Positions 42,784 through 57,724 of a DNA stretch of 64,000 nt are shown one piece after another. The notes below the pieces were generated by a model, which ran no database searches, was not told the DNA's origin, and saw nothing but the letters and a program-made list of their open reading frames with translations. Origin of the DNA: Natronococcus sp. A-GB1 (GTDB taxonomy: Archaea; Halobacteriota; Halobacteria; Halobacteriales; Natrialbaceae); NCBI RefSeq assembly GCF_029688845.1, contig NZ_JARUKW010000008.1, positions 1 through 64,000 of the forward strand, written 5' to 3'. Numbering within the stretch: position 1 is the first letter of the stretch; the number at the start of each line of letters is the position of its first letter. Position numbers and translations under genes: made by a program.

Positions 42784-42828
42784 GCCGAATCAGGTCCGTT
42801 ATAGGCGTCGCCCCCATCGCTCGAACCT

Positions 42829-43395
42829 ATGTGGCCGCTCGGACACGTAGCTATCGGCTATCTCTGTTACGCGCTCGCGACCCGGACCCGGTTCGACCGA
42901 TCCCCGGGTGGGATCGCCGTCCTCGCACTCCTGGTCGGCACCCAGTTCCCCGACCTGATCGACAAACCCCTGGCGTGGTACCTGGGCGTGATCCCGACGG
43001 GCCGAACGCTCGCACACTCCCTGCTGTTTCTGGTCCCGGTCTCGATCGGCGTCTACCTCCTCGCGCGGCGGTACGGTCGTCCCGAGTACGGGTTCGCGTT
43101 CGGACTCGGCGCGATCTCGCACACGCTGGTCGACGCCCTGCCGGCGCTGTGGGGTGGGACCGATCCGAGCTTCCTGCTGTGGCCCGCACTTCCGGTCGAG
43201 GGTTACGAGTCGGGCGCGCCGACGGTGACCGCCCTCTTCCTCGAGTCGCTGAGCGACCCCTACTTCCTCTCGGAGTTCGTCCTCGCGGCCGTCGCACTCG
43301 TCGTCTGGCGACGCGACGGCTACCCCGGACTCGCGGCGATCCGAACGCTTCTCGAGCGCGTCCTCCCCGATCGCTCGACGCCCGACTCGAACTGA
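42829..43395 (+). CDS. YdjM/DUF457-type membrane-bound metal-dependent hydrolase
   Basis: 188 residues, four hydrophobic segments. MWPLGHVAIGYLCYALATR, VGTQFPDLIDKPLAWYLG, GRTLAHSLLFLVPVS and AISHTLVDALPALWGG hold the His/Asp metal ligands of the YdjM/LexA-binding family. The active site would lie on the cytosolic face. Its substrate is unknown; haloarchaeal genomes usually carry several. It follows the permease genes by 45 nt. Confidence 0.85.
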   Translation: MWPLGHVAIGYLCYALATRTRFDRSPGGIAVLALLVGTQFPDLIDKPLAWYLGVIPTGRTLAHSLLFLVPVSIGVYLLARRYGRPEYGFAFGLGAISHTLVDALPALWGGTDPSFLLWPALPVEGYESGAPTVTALFLESLSDPYFLSEFVLAAVALVVWRRDGYPGLAAIRTLLERVLPDRSTPDSN

Positions 43396-44113
43396 CGGCT
43401 CGCCGAGTCGAACGCCGCTTCTGTCCTGTTCTCAAGACGTTCAACTCGCCGACAGAACTATCTCTGCATGGGTGGTCGACGCAACTGCGGGGAATACGAT
43501 TGCCGGCAACCGACCGTTAGGGCACGAGCGGTCCCGGCACCGTCCGTGTGATCGATGTCCGACTCCAACGGACCGTTTCGACGCTCGCGTCGAGTCCCGC
43601 TCGACGGCGTCGACCGTTTTCGAGCCGATAGTACTTCGTCGTCGTCTCGCCCGACAGATTCGACCGCGGCTCGCTTCGCGGGCGCGTAACTGGCGTACCC
43701 GACTCGAGCGCTTCGGCGGTCTCGAACGCCCTGGGTGCCGTCGACCCCTTACCCGACCCGCGGCGTCGCGTCGGGCTCGAGCGTTCGTCTCGGGCTCCTT
43801 ACAGCCCTCTCTAAGCGTGTCATAGAACGATTCTCATGGGGATACTCTCATCCTTCTTTCAGTGAACCAACCGTTACGTAGAGGTGCCCACGTACCTTTT
43901 TCCGCCTCGGGATTCCTCACTGCGTTCGGAACCGCTCGGCGCAAAAATCTACGCTAAAAGGGCCGCTCGCTTCCCGCTGGTCGCTCGCGGGTGCTGCGCT
44001 TGTGATACTACCGCGGTGGTACCGCCTTCGCCTGTACTGAGCGTCCGTCGCTATGGAACGCAACTGTACTGGGGATGAACGCGCGTTACATACGTCTGTA
44101 CATGGAACGTTTG

Positions 44114-44400
44114 GCTTCGAGTCTGCAGCCCTGACTGACCACCGCTGGGTGGGTCTGAAAGGGGACAGGGGCTTTCGTGATAATCTCTACGGAAGCAGGT
44201 CCTGCTCACACGAACACAGGGGATTGCCACGCCCTCCCCAGCCGACTCACTCGCTGCGCTCGTTCGTCCACTGGAAGACGCGCTGCGTCTTCCAAGCCGT
44301 TCGCTCGCATGGCTCGCGAAGACCTCGCACAGTGTCGCCAACCATCCTCACTAACGTTCGGCCGGTCGACAGCGCGCGCCACCGCAGCGAGTGGGTGGTC
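44114..44400 (+). repeat. Dispersed repeat, copy A
   Basis: Starts near TCGAGTCTGCAGCCCTGACT, continues GACCACCGCTGGGTGGG, CACACGAACACAGGGG, GCCACGCCCTCCCCAGCCGA, a 9-10 bp hairpin (GGAAGACGC-GCT-GCGTCTTCC, 44273-44293), GCGAAGACCTCGCACAG, and ends near GACAGCGCGCGCCACCGCAG. Shares these blocks with copies at 49978 and 56715. The gap 43396-44529 holds otherwise no gene that I can see. Confidence 0.75.
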
Positions 44401-44529
44401 CGACATGATACATGGTCCGCCTATACGTGCCGTCTGGCAGGTAGTCGAGGAGAGGTATGAGAACAGTTCTATGACACCCTAGCCCTCTCTATTGGCAACG
44501 CCCACGTTGTGGGCGAGAAAACGGTCCTG

Positions 44530-46329
44530 CTACTCCACGGTGACGCTTTTCGCCAGATTTCGGGGCTTGTCGATCGACCGACCCAGCTCGTGGGCCGTCC
44601 AGTAGGCGACTCGCTGGAGCTGGACGTTCGCGACCATCGAGCTCGTGATCTCGCCGGCCGGCGGCACCTCGAGGACGTGGTCGGCGTAGCGGCCGACCTC
44701 CGATCGGCCGTCGGTGATAGCGACGACCGGTGTCCCCCGAGCCTCGACCTCCTTGACGTTCCCGATGGTCTTCTCCGCGCGGCGACCGTCGCCGGTGACG
44801 ATCGCAAACACCGGCGTCTGTTCGGTGACGAGTGCGAGCGGCCCGTGTTTGAGCTCGCCGGCCGCGAACCCCTCCGCGTGTTTGTACGTGATCTCCTTCA
44901 TCTTCAGCGCGCCCTCGAGGGCGACTGGGTAGTGATACCCTCGCCCGATGAAGAAGTAGGCGCTCGCGTCGGCGTACGTCGAGGCGACCTCGCGGGCGGC
45001 GTCTTCGTCGAGGACGGACTGGATTCGGTCGGGAACCGATCGCAGCTCGCGGACCAGGTCGCGGGAGCGGTGGTCGCTCAACGCGGCGGCGAGCATCGTC
45101 AACGCGGCCTGCTGGCTCACGAACGTCTTCGTCGCCGCGACGCTGATCTCCGGTCCGGCACGGATGTACAGGACGCGATCGGTCTCGCGGGCGGCCGAAC
45201 TCCCGACGACGTTCGTCACCGCGACGGTCGTCGCGCCGGCGGCGTTGGCCTCTCGCAGCGCCCGCAGCGTGTCGGCGGTCTCGCCGCTCTGGGTGACGCC
45301 GACGACGACCGACTCGGTGTCGATCGGCATCATCTCGGCCTCGAACTCGCTGGCCAGGTAGGCGTGGGCCGGCACGCCCCACTCCCGGAACAGCTGCGCG
45401 GCGAACAGCGCCGCGTGGTAAGAGGTTCCACAGGCGACGAACGTCACGGGCGGGTTCAGCTCGAACCCCTCGAACTCCTCCAAAGTGACCCGGCCGCTGA
45501 GCTCGTCGAGCCGACCGCGGAGACACTCCCGGAGCGCCGACGGCTGCTCGTTGATCTCCTTTCGCATGTAGTGGTCGTAGCCGCTCTTGCCGGCGTCCTC
45601 TGGGTCCCACTCGATCGTCTCGATCGAGGTCTCGACGACCCGCCCCTCGCTATCGGTGACCGAGATCTCGTCGCCCTCGAGCCGGGCGAACTCGCCGTCC
45701 TCGAGGTAGATCACTCGATCGGTAAACTCGATAAAGGCGGGGACGTCGCTGGCGAGGTAGGTGCCGTCGTCGGCGAGGCCGAGCACCAGCGGCGACTCGT
45801 GGCGCGCGGCGTACACCGTCTCCGAGCCCGCGAAGACGGCCGCGACGGCGTAGCTTCCCTCGAGTCGACCGATCGTCGCGCGGAACGCGGCCTCGTGGTC
45901 GAGCCCGTCCTCGAGGTAGCCGGCGATCAGGTGCGGGATAACCTCCGTGTCGGTCTCGCTGCGGAACTCGACGCCCTCGGCCGAAAGCTCGTCGCGCAAC
46001 CGCTGATAGTTCTCGATGATCCCGTTGTGGACGACCGCGACCCGGTCCTCCGCGTCCGTGTGGGGGTGGGCGTTGCGGTCCGACGGCGGTCCGTGGGTGC
46101 TCCAGCGGGTGTGACCGATCCCGGTCGTCTGGTTGCCGATCTCGGCGCCCGCGAGCGCGTTCTCGAGCGCCGAGAGCTCGCCCTGGCGCTTGTGAACGTC
46201 GAGTCTGCCGTCGGCCAGCGCGATTCCCGCCGAGTCGTAGCCGCGGTACTCGAGCTGGGAGAGGCCGTGGAGCAGGACGTCGGCCGCGTTCGAGCGATCG
46301 GCGCCGACGTAGCCGATGATCCCGCACAT
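44530..46329 (-). CDS. glmS: Glutamine--fructose-6-phosphate aminotransferase
   Basis: 599 residues. Makes glucosamine-6-phosphate from fructose-6-phosphate and glutamine. The Met-Cys start (MCGIIGYVGADRSN) puts the glutaminase nucleophile Cys at the N-terminus; HTRWSTHGPP is the glutaminase loop. Two SIS isomerase domains follow (ACGTSYHAALFAAQLFREWG; VTQSGETADTLRALREANAA; GRGYHYPVALEGALKMKEIT), and the C-terminal KPRNLAKSVTVE carries the Lys of the sugar site. The ATG at 46329 overlaps the glmU-like stop (TGATG). Supplies UDP-GlcNAc for surface glycans. Confidence 0.96.
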   Translation of the reverse strand: MCGIIGYVGADRSNAADVLLHGLSQLEYRGYDSAGIALADGRLDVHKRQGELSALENALAGAEIGNQTTGIGHTRWSTHGPPSDRNAHPHTDAEDRVAVVHNGIIENYQRLRDELSAEGVEFRSETDTEVIPHLIAGYLEDGLDHEAAFRATIGRLEGSYAVAAVFAGSETVYAARHESPLVLGLADDGTYLASDVPAFIEFTDRVIYLEDGEFARLEGDEISVTDSEGRVVETSIETIEWDPEDAGKSGYDHYMRKEINEQPSALRECLRGRLDELSGRVTLEEFEGFELNPPVTFVACGTSYHAALFAAQLFREWGVPAHAYLASEFEAEMMPIDTESVVVGVTQSGETADTLRALREANAAGATTVAVTNVVGSSAARETDRVLYIRAGPEISVAATKTFVSQQAALTMLAAALSDHRSRDLVRELRSVPDRIQSVLDEDAAREVASTYADASAYFFIGRGYHYPVALEGALKMKEITYKHAEGFAAGELKHGPLALVTEQTPVFAIVTGDGRRAEKTIGNVKEVEARGTPVVAITDGRSEVGRYADHVLEVPPAGEITSSMVANVQLQRVAYWTAHELGRSIDKPRNLAKSVTVE

Positions 46330-47498
46330 CAGCTCCACACCTCCGCGTCGGCGACGATGGTTCCGCTGACGGTCGACCCCCCGTGACAGACCGCGCCGTG
46401 GCCGACGACAGTCCCTGGCTCGTAGGTCACCCCACCGATGTCGCGAACGTGATCGGCCAGCACCGCGCCGAGGATCGTCTCCCGGTGGACGCGGTCGCCG
46501 ATCTCGACGTCACCCGGGCCGCCGGCGACCGTCGAGTTCGGACCGATCCCGACACCCCGTCCGGTGACGCAGTCTCGTATCGTCGCGCCGTTGTCGACGC
46601 GGGTGTCGGCGTCGAGCACCGACCGCTCGACCGTCGCGTTCGAGCCGATAGTGACGTTCTCGCCCAGAGAGACGTTCGGTCCGACGACCGCACCGGGACC
46701 GACGACACAGTCGTCGTCGATCACGACCGGTTCGACCACCGTTGCGTCCTCGTGGACGGACGCGCTCGCGGCGATCTGCCGCTCCTCGCCGTCCTCAAGC
46801 AGGTCGTCGGCGATCCGAAGCAGATCCCACGGGTAGGTGGCGTCGATCCAGGTTCCCTCGGAGACGACCCCTCGGACCTCCTCGTCGGCCTCGAGCAGCG
46901 TCGCGATCCCGTCGACCAGCGACTGCTCGCCGGCGCGGGGTTCGCTCCGGCGAATCGCCTCGAAGACCGCCGGCTCGAAGGCGTACACACCCGCGTTGAG
47001 CTGATAGCCACGATCGTCCCGCGGGTTCTCGACGATCTCCGTAACCGTACCGTCCTCGAGGAGGACGCCGCCGTACCGGGTGACGTCGGCCCGCCGGACC
47101 AGCCCGAGCGTCGCCGTCGCCGACTCGCGGTCGTGGGCCGCGATGACGTCCTCGATGATCCGGCTGTCGATCAGCTGATCGCCGTTGACGACGAGCGCTG
47201 CACCCTCGATCGCCGGCTCGGCCGAAAGCAGCGCGTGGCCGCTGCCGAGCTGTTTGTCCTGCGTGACGTAGGTCAGGGGCACGTCCCGATAGCTCGGGCC
47301 GAACTCGGACTGGACCCGAGTCCGGCGGTAGCCGACGACGACCGTGATATCGGTGACGCCGGCGTCGATTAATGCGTCGAAGACGTGCTCGAGAATCGGC
47401 TTCGTCGCCGCCGGAAGCATCGGCTTCGGCCGGTGGGTGGTCAGCGGCCGAAGTCGCCTCCCCTCCCCTGCCGCGAGCACCACTGCGGAGTATCCCAT
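46329..47498 (-). CDS. glmU: Bifunctional GlmU-like sugar nucleotidyltransferase/acyltransferase
   Basis: 389 residues. The N-terminal half is a nucleotidyltransferase (VLAAGEGRRLRPLTTHRPKP, QLGSGHALLSAEP, VNGDQLI); the C-terminal half is a left-handed beta helix with V-V-G-P-G-A-V-V-G, SLGENVTIGSNATVERSVLD and similar turns. In archaea this pairing carries glucosamine-1-P acetylation and UDP-GlcNAc formation. First gene of the two-gene operon with glmS; a TATA-like box is not evident in the region 47499-47640. Confidence 0.88.
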   Translation of the reverse strand: MGYSAVVLAAGEGRRLRPLTTHRPKPMLPAATKPILEHVFDALIDAGVTDITVVVGYRRTRVQSEFGPSYRDVPLTYVTQDKQLGSGHALLSAEPAIEGAALVVNGDQLIDSRIIEDVIAAHDRESATATLGLVRRADVTRYGGVLLEDGTVTEIVENPRDDRGYQLNAGVYAFEPAVFEAIRRSEPRAGEQSLVDGIATLLEADEEVRGVVSEGTWIDATYPWDLLRIADDLLEDGEERQIAASASVHEDATVVEPVVIDDDCVVGPGAVVGPNVSLGENVTIGSNATVERSVLDADTRVDNGATIRDCVTGRGVGIGPNSTVAGGPGDVEIGDRVHRETILGAVLADHVRDIGGVTYEPGTVVGHGAVCHGGSTVSGTIVADAEVWS

Positions 47499-49847: not shown

Positions 49848-49977
49848 GCTCGAGTGTGTGGTCCCGATACCCCTAAGCGTTTCTCGGCCGACCCACGGTT
49901 CCGGATTGAGCCAGGGCCAGCGCCGATCCGACAGCTCGACGGAGCGACGCCTATGGACCACGACGAGTGGATCGACC

Positions 49978-50260
49978 GACTCGAGTCTACAGCCCTGACT
50001 GACCACCGCCGGGTGGGACTGGAAGGGCTTTGGCGGTAGTGACGACGATACCAGTCCCGTTCGCACGAACACAGGGGTTCGCCACGCCCTCCCCAGCCGA
50101 TTCGCTCGCTTTGCTCACGGCTTCCGCCGTTCGCATTGCCGCGGCGCACAGCGCCGCGCTCCGCTCGCTTTATCCCTTGCGTAGGTTCGGACGACGGCTC
50201 ACGCCCCGCTGCGCTCGCCGTCGTCAAGCACGCGCCACCGCAGGAGAGTTCGTTGAACCA
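49978..50260 (+). repeat. Dispersed repeat, copy B (more diverged)
   Basis: Same left block as copy A (TCGAGTCTACAGCCCTGACT, GACCACCGCCGGGTGGG), then CGCACGAACACAGGGG and GCCACGCCCTCCCCAGCCGA. In the right part it is diverged but still has a hairpin (GCGGCGC-ACA-GCGCCGC, 50141-50157) and ends in CACGCGCCACCGCAG. The sequence between it and 50360 shows nothing else. Confidence 0.65.
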
Positions 50261-50359
50261 AAGTGACTCATAGCTGGTCTGTGCTGAATATACAGTGCCT
50301 TTCGCTCACGACACTTACAGACCCAATATAAACGGATTATTCGATTAAGAGAGAGACCA

Positions 50360-56340: not shown

Positions 56341-56714
56341 GCGTTCTCCCCCGGTAGCGCTCGAGCGGCCCCTTGCCGTGTTCGTCCTCGCTCGCTCATC
56401 ACTCGAGTCGAGTCGGGCCGGTCCTATCGTCGGTCGGGTTAACAGTTGCGACAGTTATACGTGGCTGAGTGTCCCTGCTCCGGAACTGATCCGATCGGCT
56501 GACGGTCGTTTCGTCGAACCTCTCGAGCGGCAAACATGGCTCTCGACGTCTCTACCTCCTGTCTGGGGTGACACGGGATCGGAACTGGCCGTAGAGCCAG
56601 ATAGTGATTCCGGACCGAGCAATTGTCGGTAGCGATAGTTGACAACGCGATTCTTCACCCAGGGTTTGGTGTGAAGTTCGCGTTCCGTACAGATGAACAA
56701 CGTATCAGCTCAGT

Positions 56715-57000
56715 CCGACCATCCCACCTGCAGTGGCGCGCGCTGTCAACGGGCCGAACGTCAGTGAGGACGGTCGACGATGCTGTGCGAGGTCTTCGCG
56801 AGTAACACGAGCGAATGGCTTGGCAGAGCTTGCTCTGCCAGTGGATGAGCGAACGGAGTGAGCGAGTCGGCTGGGGAGGGCGTGGCAATCCCCTGTGTTC
56901 GTGTGAGTAGGGCCTGTTGCTCGTCAGTATCACCAGGGAGCCCCTGGCCCTTTTCAGTCTCACCCCGCAGCGGTTGGCCAGTACTGGAGACTCGAGGCCG
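56715..57000 (-). repeat. Dispersed repeat, copy C
   Basis: Opposite orientation to A and B. Reverse strand: CTCGAGTCTCCAGTACTGG, GCGGGGTGAGACTGAAAAGG, CACACGAACACAGGGG, GCCACGCCCTCCCCAGCCGA, hairpin GGCAGAGC-AA-GCTCTGCC (56822-56839), GCGAAGACCTCGCACAG, ending GACAGCGCGCGCCACTGCAG. Closest to copy A in the right half. Confidence 0.75.
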
Positions 57001-57073
57001 GACGGTCCATACTCACCCAGTTACCGAGTCGCTCGAGTCGGTTTCAGCCGTCGTCCGAAGCCCGAGTCCGTAC

Positions 57074-57724
57074 TTAGTAGAGAGCGGTGTGCAGCGCCGA
57101 GAGTAGCTTTCGCTCGATCCGACGGAGGTGGTCGTCTACCGCCCGTCGGCTGATCCCCAGTTCGGACCCGAGTTGCTCGCTCGTCGTCTCCCGCGGAATC
57201 TCGTAGTAGCCGCCCTCGATCGCCAGCGAGAGGACCTCGCGCTGTCGGGCCGTCAGCTCCGGTAGCACTTCCTCGAGCGAGACCACCGGGGATGACCGGG
57301 CGGGAACGCCGACCTCGCGCTTGCGGAGAACTTCGACGTCGAACCCGTCCTCGAGGAGGGCGGCGTAGAGGCCGGTGAGGTTCTCGGGGTCGAGCGCGAG
57401 GATCCGACAGTGTTTCCGTCCGTTCTCGTACCGCAACGGCGGGAGCAACAGGCAGTCGTGGGACTCGAGGTAGCGCTCGATGTGCGAGGTCTCGTGTCGC
57501 TTCAGACAGGAACCCGTGATGACGACCGTCTCGCCGTCTCCCCGGACGCAGTCCTCGATTCCGATATCTGCCCGGACCCGGGAGAGCACCGGCTCGGCCG
57601 ACGAGCCGACGACGTAGAGGAGATCCGCGTGATCGTTACACCAGAGTTCGATCCGGCAGTCGGTCCCATCGGTCGGCGCGGTGTAGGCGCTCGAGTCGGC
57701 GATAGCGACGGTTGCCTCGTACAC
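57074..57724 (-). CDS. bat-type HTH regulator beside the hut cluster
   Basis: 216 residues from GTG 57724 ([19 protein letters not shown]). N-terminal sensing region, then [40 protein letters not shown] and [20 protein letters not shown]: the HTH-10 (bat) domain. Divergent from hutU with an 85-nt promoter region that it probably controls as an activator or repressor of histidine degradation. The ligand is not known. Confidence 0.85.

What the first reader, a model, noticed from the sequence alone, without database searches (positions are those of the whole stretch)
44114..44400. Dispersed repeat with a covarying hairpin (copy A, with B and C)
Seen: three ~285-bp elements (44114-44400 +, 49978-50260 +, 56715-57000 -) share blocks such as CACACGAACACAGGGG and GCCACGCCCTCCCCAGCCGA. 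In the same place each has a hairpin of different sequence: GGAAGACGC/GCGTCTTCC, GCGGCGC/GCGCCGC and GGCAGAGC/GCTCTGCC. Pairing is kept while the bases change, which argues for selection on structure (RNA, or DNA hairpin used in mobility). No ORF common to all copies is convincing.
Basis: partly seen in the sequence, partly recalled or inferred. Interest (0 to 1): 0.68.

Follow-up and report, generated by a model that had tools for sequence, protein, structure and literature searches.

The report
Modular hairpin MITE at gene ends
The three repeats are decayed copies of a small non-coding jumping element of salt-loving archaea whose interior is an older, widespread hairpin unit that keeps its folded shape while its sequence changes, and that sits beside the ends of genes, in our sample never between two gene starts.

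Summary
Observation: partly confirmed. The three copies are real (nhmmer E 1e-80 to 1e-56) and the genome, a Natronococcus, has about 24. But B's hairpin belongs to a different inserted module from the A/C hairpin.

What it is: the 285-bp block is the core of a longer MITE. Young copies in sister species are 400-540 bp, with 31-bp terminal inverted repeats, 4-bp NTAN target duplications and an empty site in a relative. Copy C keeps degenerate ends. The same ends bound many one-gene cassettes and 5-6.6-kb transposons with a 610-aa DDE transposase in other haloarchaea.

The structured core is older. It occurs in 66 of 101 Natrialbaceae genomes (up to 134 copies), usually without those ends, as a sharply bounded ~120-150-bp fold-back unit. 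No single base pair covaries significantly against a tree-based null, but whole stems are replaced by unrelated complementary sequence (13/16 distinct tails pair versus 14% of chimeras, p=2e-9). Hairpin modules differ at seven of eight orthologous insertions. Core copies sit between convergent genes in 32 of 48 cases and in no divergent promoter region.

Verdict: a new MITE family carrying a REP-like, structure-conserved unit. Function at gene 3' ends is inferred, not shown.

The parts
44084..44428 (+). Copy A: MITE core plus inner flanks; outer terminal repeats decayed. Lies between convergent genes (42828-43395 + and 44529-46338 -)
   Evidence: nhmmer E 2.8e-77; gene context
44206..44247 (+). 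Most conserved blocks of copy A (CACACGAACACAGGGG ... GCCACGCCCTCCCCAGCCGA)
   Evidence: sequence; core pattern in 66 of 101 family genomes
44273..44293 (+). Copy A, A/C-type module hairpin 1: GGAAGACGC / GCGTCTTCC
   Evidence: sequence; module alignment of 28 copies
44300..44320 (+). Copy A, A/C-type module hairpin 2: TTCGC / GCGAA (TTCGT/ACGAA in other copies)
   Evidence: sequence
44335..44371 (+). Copy A tail stem region; poorly paired in this copy (net score 3)
44147..44171 (+). G-quadruplex-like motif GGGTGGGTCTGAAAGGGGACAGGGG in the MITE head; long arms insert between its 3rd and 4th G-tracts in other copies
   Evidence: sequence; arms
43866..44048 (+). Second MITE type (the 280-bp family with the same terminal repeats) directly upstream of copy A
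   Evidence: nhmmer E 1.4e-45 with a 4-copy profile
49963..50289 (+). Copy B
   Evidence: nhmmer E 1e-56; orthologous copy L127 in G003, flank 98% identical
50118..50157 (+). Copy B, B-type module: CGGC/GCCG (50118-50129) and GCGGCGC/GCGCCGC (50141-50157); not homologous to the A/C module
   Evidence: sequence
50190..50225 (+). Copy B tail stem GACGACGGC / GCCGTCGTC, a sequence unrelated to C's tail stem but complementary
   Evidence: sequence
56633..57085 (-). Copy C: near full-length MITE with degenerate terminal repeats at both ends; starts at the stop codon of the gene at 57073-57724
   Evidence: nhmmer positions 14-457 of 460, E 1.4e-80; orthologous copy L104 in G003
56822..56839 (-). Copy C, A/C-type module hairpin 1: GGCAGAGC / GCTCTGCC
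   Evidence: sequence
56745..56778 (-). Copy C tail stem GTCGACCG / CGTTGAC
   Evidence: sequence

Best explanation
The repeats are members of a non-autonomous terminal-inverted-repeat transposon (MITE) family of Natronococcus. They were inserted by a cut-and-paste type transposase that recognises a 31-bp end (consensus CAGTAGNTNGTANNRCGRTTTCKTTATTCAG) and duplicates 4 bp, NTAN (shown by ends, duplications and an empty site). The transposase acts in trans: the same ends bound many single-gene cassettes without a transposase, and also 5-6.6-kb transposons that carry a 610-aa DDE transposase (shown as linkage; action in trans is inferred). The interior is a separate, older unit: a ~120-150-bp fold-back repeat of Natrialbaceae, present mostly without those ends, whose tail stem is kept base-paired while its sequence is replaced, and to which extra hairpin modules are added or removed, probably by recombination between copies (pattern shown, mechanism inferred). 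Core copies sit beside gene 3' ends, mostly between convergent genes and not in divergent promoter regions (shown). The likeliest role, inferred, is a REP-like extragenic unit tolerated or selected at gene 3' ends, acting as a folded DNA or RNA structure there.
For: Terminal repeats and duplications; 42 of 48 tabulated elements have identical 4-bp flanks, T at position 2 in 47 and A at position 3 in 45. Empty site: G004 has one GTAA, uninterrupted, where the G001 copy L116 has GTAA-element-GTAA. Copy C aligned end to end with the MITE model. Transposons with both ends, a transposase and matching duplications: Natrinema pellirubrum ATAC/ATAC, H. salinarum NRC-1 TTAC/TTAC, H. salinarum 91-R6 and Halobacterium sp. 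GSL-19 TTAT/TTAT; Halomicrobium urmianum has both ends but unmatched flanks. Single-gene cassettes. Core without these ends elsewhere: ends found in 33 of 84 Natronococcus-set copies versus 1 of 69 from other genera and 0 of 84 shuffles; sharp consensus limits. Core in 66 of 101 genomes. Stem pairing 13/16 versus 13.8% of chimeras, p 2.3e-9. Modules differ at 7 of 8 orthologous loci. Gene context convergent/tandem/divergent 32/16/0 versus background 31/94/31; p 4e-9 for convergent, 1.5e-4 for no divergent.
Against: No autonomous copy was found in the window's own genome or its genus: only distant DDE paralogues (about 25-35% identity) without these ends. The transposons with a transposase are in Natrinema, Halobacterium and Halomicrobium, so mobilisation of this MITE by that transposase is inferred from matching ends. 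Only 13 of 84 copies have both ends recognisable by pattern; the window's A and B have lost theirs. The gene-context bias may reflect purging from promoters; TIR elements without the core are also often convergent (9 of 18), though 5 of 18 are divergent. Genes were called by a home-made codon score, and it missed at least one small gene near copy B. No transcription data.
Confidence: 0.8

Rival explanations
1. Structured non-coding RNA or bidirectional 3'-end element: the core is transcribed at the ends of convergent genes and its folded RNA terminates, processes or stabilises transcripts. Selection on that role keeps the stems.
For: Stem pairing kept across unrelated sequences, convergent 3'-end location with none in divergent regions and no orientation preference in tandem cases (9 vs 7), conserved sequence blocks across genera.
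Against: No archaeal-type T-run: TTTT in only 5 of 84 core copies. No Rfam match. Location may only reflect tolerance. Module turnover at orthologous sites suggests loose constraint. No expression data examined.
Confidence: 0.3
2. Stems are kept by DNA processes, not selection: hairpin-templated repair and gene conversion turn imperfect palindromes into perfect ones and swap modules between copies, so compensatory change appears without function.
For: Whole hairpins gained, lost or swapped at 7 of 8 orthologous loci; no individually significant covarying pair; adjacent inverted copies in other genera.
Against: The tail stem is replaced by many unrelated sequences while flanking single-stranded blocks stay conserved, which simple palindrome correction does not explain well.
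Confidence: 0.35
3. PATE- or REP-like element moved as single-stranded DNA by an IS200/IS605-type HUH transposase that recognises the hairpins; the MITE ends were acquired later.
For: Core is a fold-back unit with sharp ends and no TIR in other genera. Such transposase-free elements are described in Haloquadratum (PMC3119063).
Against: No conserved insertion tetranucleotide or TnpA link was shown; in Natronococcus the mobile form has classical TIRs and duplications.
Confidence: 0.15
4. Remnant of a known insertion sequence or of a coding gene.
For: GC-rich ORFs cover parts of copies.
Against: Indels between copies break frame; no transposase in any complete copy; no ISH3-level match for the partner transposase.
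Confidence: 0.03

Closest known systems
MITEs of haloarchaea (Haloquadratum HqIRS families; PMC3119063)
   Same: Short, no transposase, terminal inverted repeats, target duplication, many copies
   Different: Different ends, 4-bp NTAN duplication, structured and modular interior also found outside the MITE
Mobile insertion cassettes (transposase-free cassettes between IS-type ends; known here by name and from memory)
   Same: Single passenger genes between transposon ends, no transposase
   Different: Haloarchaeal, many unrelated cargoes, and a non-coding structured version
REP/BIME extragenic palindromes of bacteria (from general knowledge; abstracts)
   Same: High copy number, extragenic, palindromic, near gene ends, composite modules
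   Different: 120-150 bp with long conserved unpaired blocks; no RAYT partner tested; archaeal
PATEs and SMRs of Haloquadratum (PMC3119063)
   Same: Transposase-free, palindrome-bearing; SMRs insert into palindromes of other elements, as modules here sit inside hairpin regions
   Different: Natronococcus form has TIRs and duplications; no IS605 relation shown
ISH3 family transposons (NCBIfam NF033541)
   Same: Partner transposase is distantly related; 4-bp duplication
   Different: Score 118.6 bits, cut-off 225; partner elements are 5-6.6 kb with several genes

Membership tests
MITE | Terminal inverted repeats | tested here: met
   31-bp ends in young copies; degenerate in window copy C, lost in A and B
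MITE | Short, no transposase gene | tested here: met
   Complete copies about 400-570 bp without a transposase ORF
MITE | Target-site duplication and empty site | tested here: met
   4-bp duplications in 42 of 48 elements of the end family; empty site in G004
MITE | Autonomous partner with the same ends | tested here: inconclusive
   Found in other genera, not in the own genome or genus
ISH3 family (partner transposase) | NCBIfam NF033541 above curated cut-off | tested here: not met
   118.6 bits against 225
REP/BIME | High-copy extragenic palindrome at gene ends | tested here: met
   Up to 134 copies; convergent/tandem/divergent 32/16/0
REP/BIME | 20-40 nt unit | tested here: not met
   Unit is about 120-150 bp
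REP/BIME | Associated RAYT (REP-associated) transposase | not tested
   No search made
PATE | No TIR and no target duplication | tested here: not met
   Natronococcus form has both; other-genera cores lack the TIR and their duplications were not tested
Known RNA family | Rfam match at gathering score | tested here: not met
   None in the window; only sub-threshold chance hits in four loci
Structure-conserved element | Covarying pairs against a phylogenetic null | tested here: inconclusive
   No pair at E<0.05; stem-level pairing p 2.3e-9

The most novel reading that the evidence does not exclude
The core is a new class of archaeal convergent-gene 3'-end element: a structured, orientation-independent fold-back unit selected for what its folded RNA or DNA does between convergent genes, spread through Natrialbaceae and in Natronococcus captured as cargo by a transposon system whose other members carry protein genes.
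Probability: 0.3. Interest if true: 0.75.

Novelty: new variant of a known kind. Interest (0 to 1): 0.6.

Why it matters
It links three things apparently not described together: an abundant structure-conserved repeat at gene ends in archaea, a family of transposase-free cassettes sharing one set of ends, and large transposons with those ends that often carry a CRISPR-derived HRAMP operon. The repeat gives a simple test of whether folded repeats shape gene ends in archaea, which terminate without bacterial-type hairpins, and orthologous copies with different hairpin modules offer natural experiments.

Tried and rejected
Rfam, at gathering and relaxed thresholds: nothing. tRNA: none in the window. 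Coding reading: rejected because module indels break frame. Intrinsic terminator reading: no T-runs. Viral contigs: one short match to the inner end motif and no transposase relative. Literature search for the end sequence: only unrelated papers. Partner transposase among PF01609 and related proteins of the own genome and genus: paralogues without these ends. Apparent strand bias of listed matches in G094: set aside as a likely effect of how the list is cut. The first chimera test chose representatives partly by pairing; it was repeated with representatives chosen by sequence alone. Structure prediction was not used because the rules exclude proteins from annotated-record loci.

Full report
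OBSERVATION. A profile built from 15 complete or near-complete relatives finds them at 44084-44428 (+), 49963-50289 (+) and 57072-56636 (-) with E-values 2.8e-77, 1e-56 and 1.4e-80. The window lies in a 4.5-Mb draft genome (G000, contig 56) whose near relatives are Natronococcus. It holds about 24 copies, and same-genus genomes hold dozens of fragments. The hairpins exist, but they are not one homologous stem: A and C share a two-hairpin module, B has another, and many copies have neither.

ENDS. Extending young copies of Natronococcus pandeyae (G001) shows that the ~285-bp block is only the interior. The full element has terminal inverted repeats CAGTAGTTGGTANNACGGTTTCGTTATTCAG and direct 4-bp duplications outside them, e.g. 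TTAT/TTAT, ATAA/ATAA, GTAA/GTAA. Over 48 tabulated elements with these ends, of all cargo types, 42 have identical 4-bp flanks and the target is NTAN. An empty site was found: a related Natronococcus (G004) has an uninterrupted gene end ...GACGACGTAAG with one GTAA, where G001 has GTAA-element-GTAA. Window copy C aligns to positions 14-457 of the 460-position model, so it retains degenerate ends; A and B have lost theirs. A second MITE type with the same ends lies just upstream of A at 43866-44048.

THE WIDER SYSTEM. The same ends bound many other short elements with no transposase: non-coding ~280-bp MITEs and cassettes with one or two genes. Cargo identified by Pfam includes a PIN-domain protein, a GNAT acetyltransferase, a SAM methyltransferase, a sensor-like membrane protein and a Cys/Met-metabolism enzyme; by eye also an SMR transporter, a response regulator and lipoprotein-like proteins. 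In public plasmids the ends also bound 5-6.6-kb transposons with a 610-aa DDE transposase near one end: Natrinema pellirubrum (flanks ATAC/ATAC), Halobacterium salinarum NRC-1 (TTAC/TTAC), H. salinarum 91-R6 and Halobacterium sp. GSL-19 (TTAT/TTAT), and Halomicrobium urmianum (unmatched flanks). The transposase matches PF01609, and NCBIfam ISH3 only far below cut-off. Mobilisation of the MITE by such a transposase is an inference from shared ends and duplication length; no copy was found in the own genome or genus.

THE CORE IS OLDER THAN THE MITE. The 27-base core pattern occurs in 66 of 101 Natrialbaceae genomes, with up to 134 copies in one, and never when read backwards. In other genera only 1 of 69 core copies has a recognisable end, against 33 of 84 in the Natronococcus-dominated set and 0 of 84 shuffles. 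Consensus conservation begins near GTGG and stops after CAGCGCGCGCCACCGCA, a unit of about 120-150 bp. So Natronococcus MITEs carry a unit that exists on its own elsewhere.

STRUCTURE. In a home-made R-scape-like test with a tree-based null, no column pair was significant (best E 4.8 in 60 tails, 0.59 in 28 modules). Looking at whole stems changes the picture: tails are replaced by unrelated sequences that still pair, e.g. GAGTCGCG/CGCGACTC, GTCCGAGAGC/GCTCTCGGTC, GCGAGCAGTTC/GAACTGCTCAC. With 16 representatives chosen by sequence dissimilarity alone, 13 reach at least 6 net pairs, against 13.8% of chimeras made from two different copies and 10% of shuffles, p = 2.3e-9. An earlier version with less careful choice of representatives gave the same direction. 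Copy A's own tail stem is degenerate.

MODULE TURNOVER. Outer flanks identify orthologous insertions between Natronococcus species. At seven of eight such loci the long arm or the hairpin modules differ. For example C (no arm) and its orthologue L104 (arm plus an extra CTGCTCACGG hairpin), or L052/L145/L147 with three different combinations. Gene conversion between dispersed copies is the simplest explanation, and it weakens arguments that count hairpin differences as compensatory mutations.

GENE CONTEXT. With a codon-usage gene caller trained on the window, 48 core copies could be classified: 32 between convergent genes, 16 tandem, 0 divergent. Background intergenic regions are 31/94/31. Enrichment for convergent p = 4e-9; absence from divergent p = 1.5e-4; against TIR elements without the core (9/4/5) the divergent difference has p = 1e-3. 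Tandem cases show no orientation preference (9 vs 7). The caller is crude; it missed a small gene near copy B, so these figures need curated annotation.

INTERPRETATION. Shown: MITE anatomy, target duplication, empty site, shared ends with cassettes and transposons, stem pairing at the stem level, module turnover, 3'-end location. Inferred: mobilisation in trans, gene conversion, and any role of the folded core. I favour a REP-like extragenic unit tolerated or selected at gene 3' ends; a true 3'-end function is plausible but untested, and absence of T-runs (TTTT in 5 of 84 core copies) speaks against simple termination.

SIDE FINDING. Several large members of the end family carry, next to the left end, an operon like HRAMP, the CRISPR-derived Cas5/Cas7-like system of haloarchaea described in PMC8730458: a Cmr3-like protein (PADLOC 2e-7), an uncharacterised protein and a Csm3-like protein (2.5e-4). 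One Natrialbaceae genome has such an operon between both ends with CTAT/CTAT flanks and no transposase. The window's own genome has the operon without recognisable ends. No link between HRAMP and the hairpin core was found.

Noticed in passing
L295 680-7149 (Natrinema pellirubrum pNATPE01), L296 574-6581 (H. salinarum NRC-1), L298 5503-12130 (Halomicrobium urmianum), L319 5435-9453 (G067): HRAMP-like operon (Cmr3/Cas5-like, uncharacterised, Csm3/Cas7-like) lies directly inside the left end of a TIR transposon; in the first three a DDE transposase sits near the right end. A CRISPR-derived module built into a transposon would be worth a study of its own.
   Followed up: partly
G000:C14:21227-22111 (L320 4110-6651): The window's own genome has an HRAMP-like operon without recognisable transposon ends; its Cas5-like gene has one in-frame TGA.
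   Followed up: partly
L155, L156, L170, L179, L186, L210, L213, L223, L224, L227, L230, L233-L253: A large family of haloarchaeal gene cassettes without transposase, each with different cargo, shares the MITE's ends and 4-bp NTAN duplication.
   Followed up: partly
L178 517-4455 (G008): A cassette of the family contains a nested IS110-like transposase and a regulator-like gene, with TTAC/TTAC flanks.
   Followed up: no
L119 and L136: The same locus in two Natronococcus species has a MITE copy in opposite orientation relative to the flanks (inversion or independent insertion).
   Followed up: no
window 44147-44171: The MITE head holds a G-quadruplex-type motif; the long variable arms insert between its third and fourth G-tracts.
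   Followed up: no
L339, L368, L327, L372, L394: In other genera core copies sit next to inverted copies, forming larger palindromes.
   Followed up: no
plasmid collection: The core is rare on plasmids (2 records) although the transposon ends are common there (81 records).
   Followed up: no
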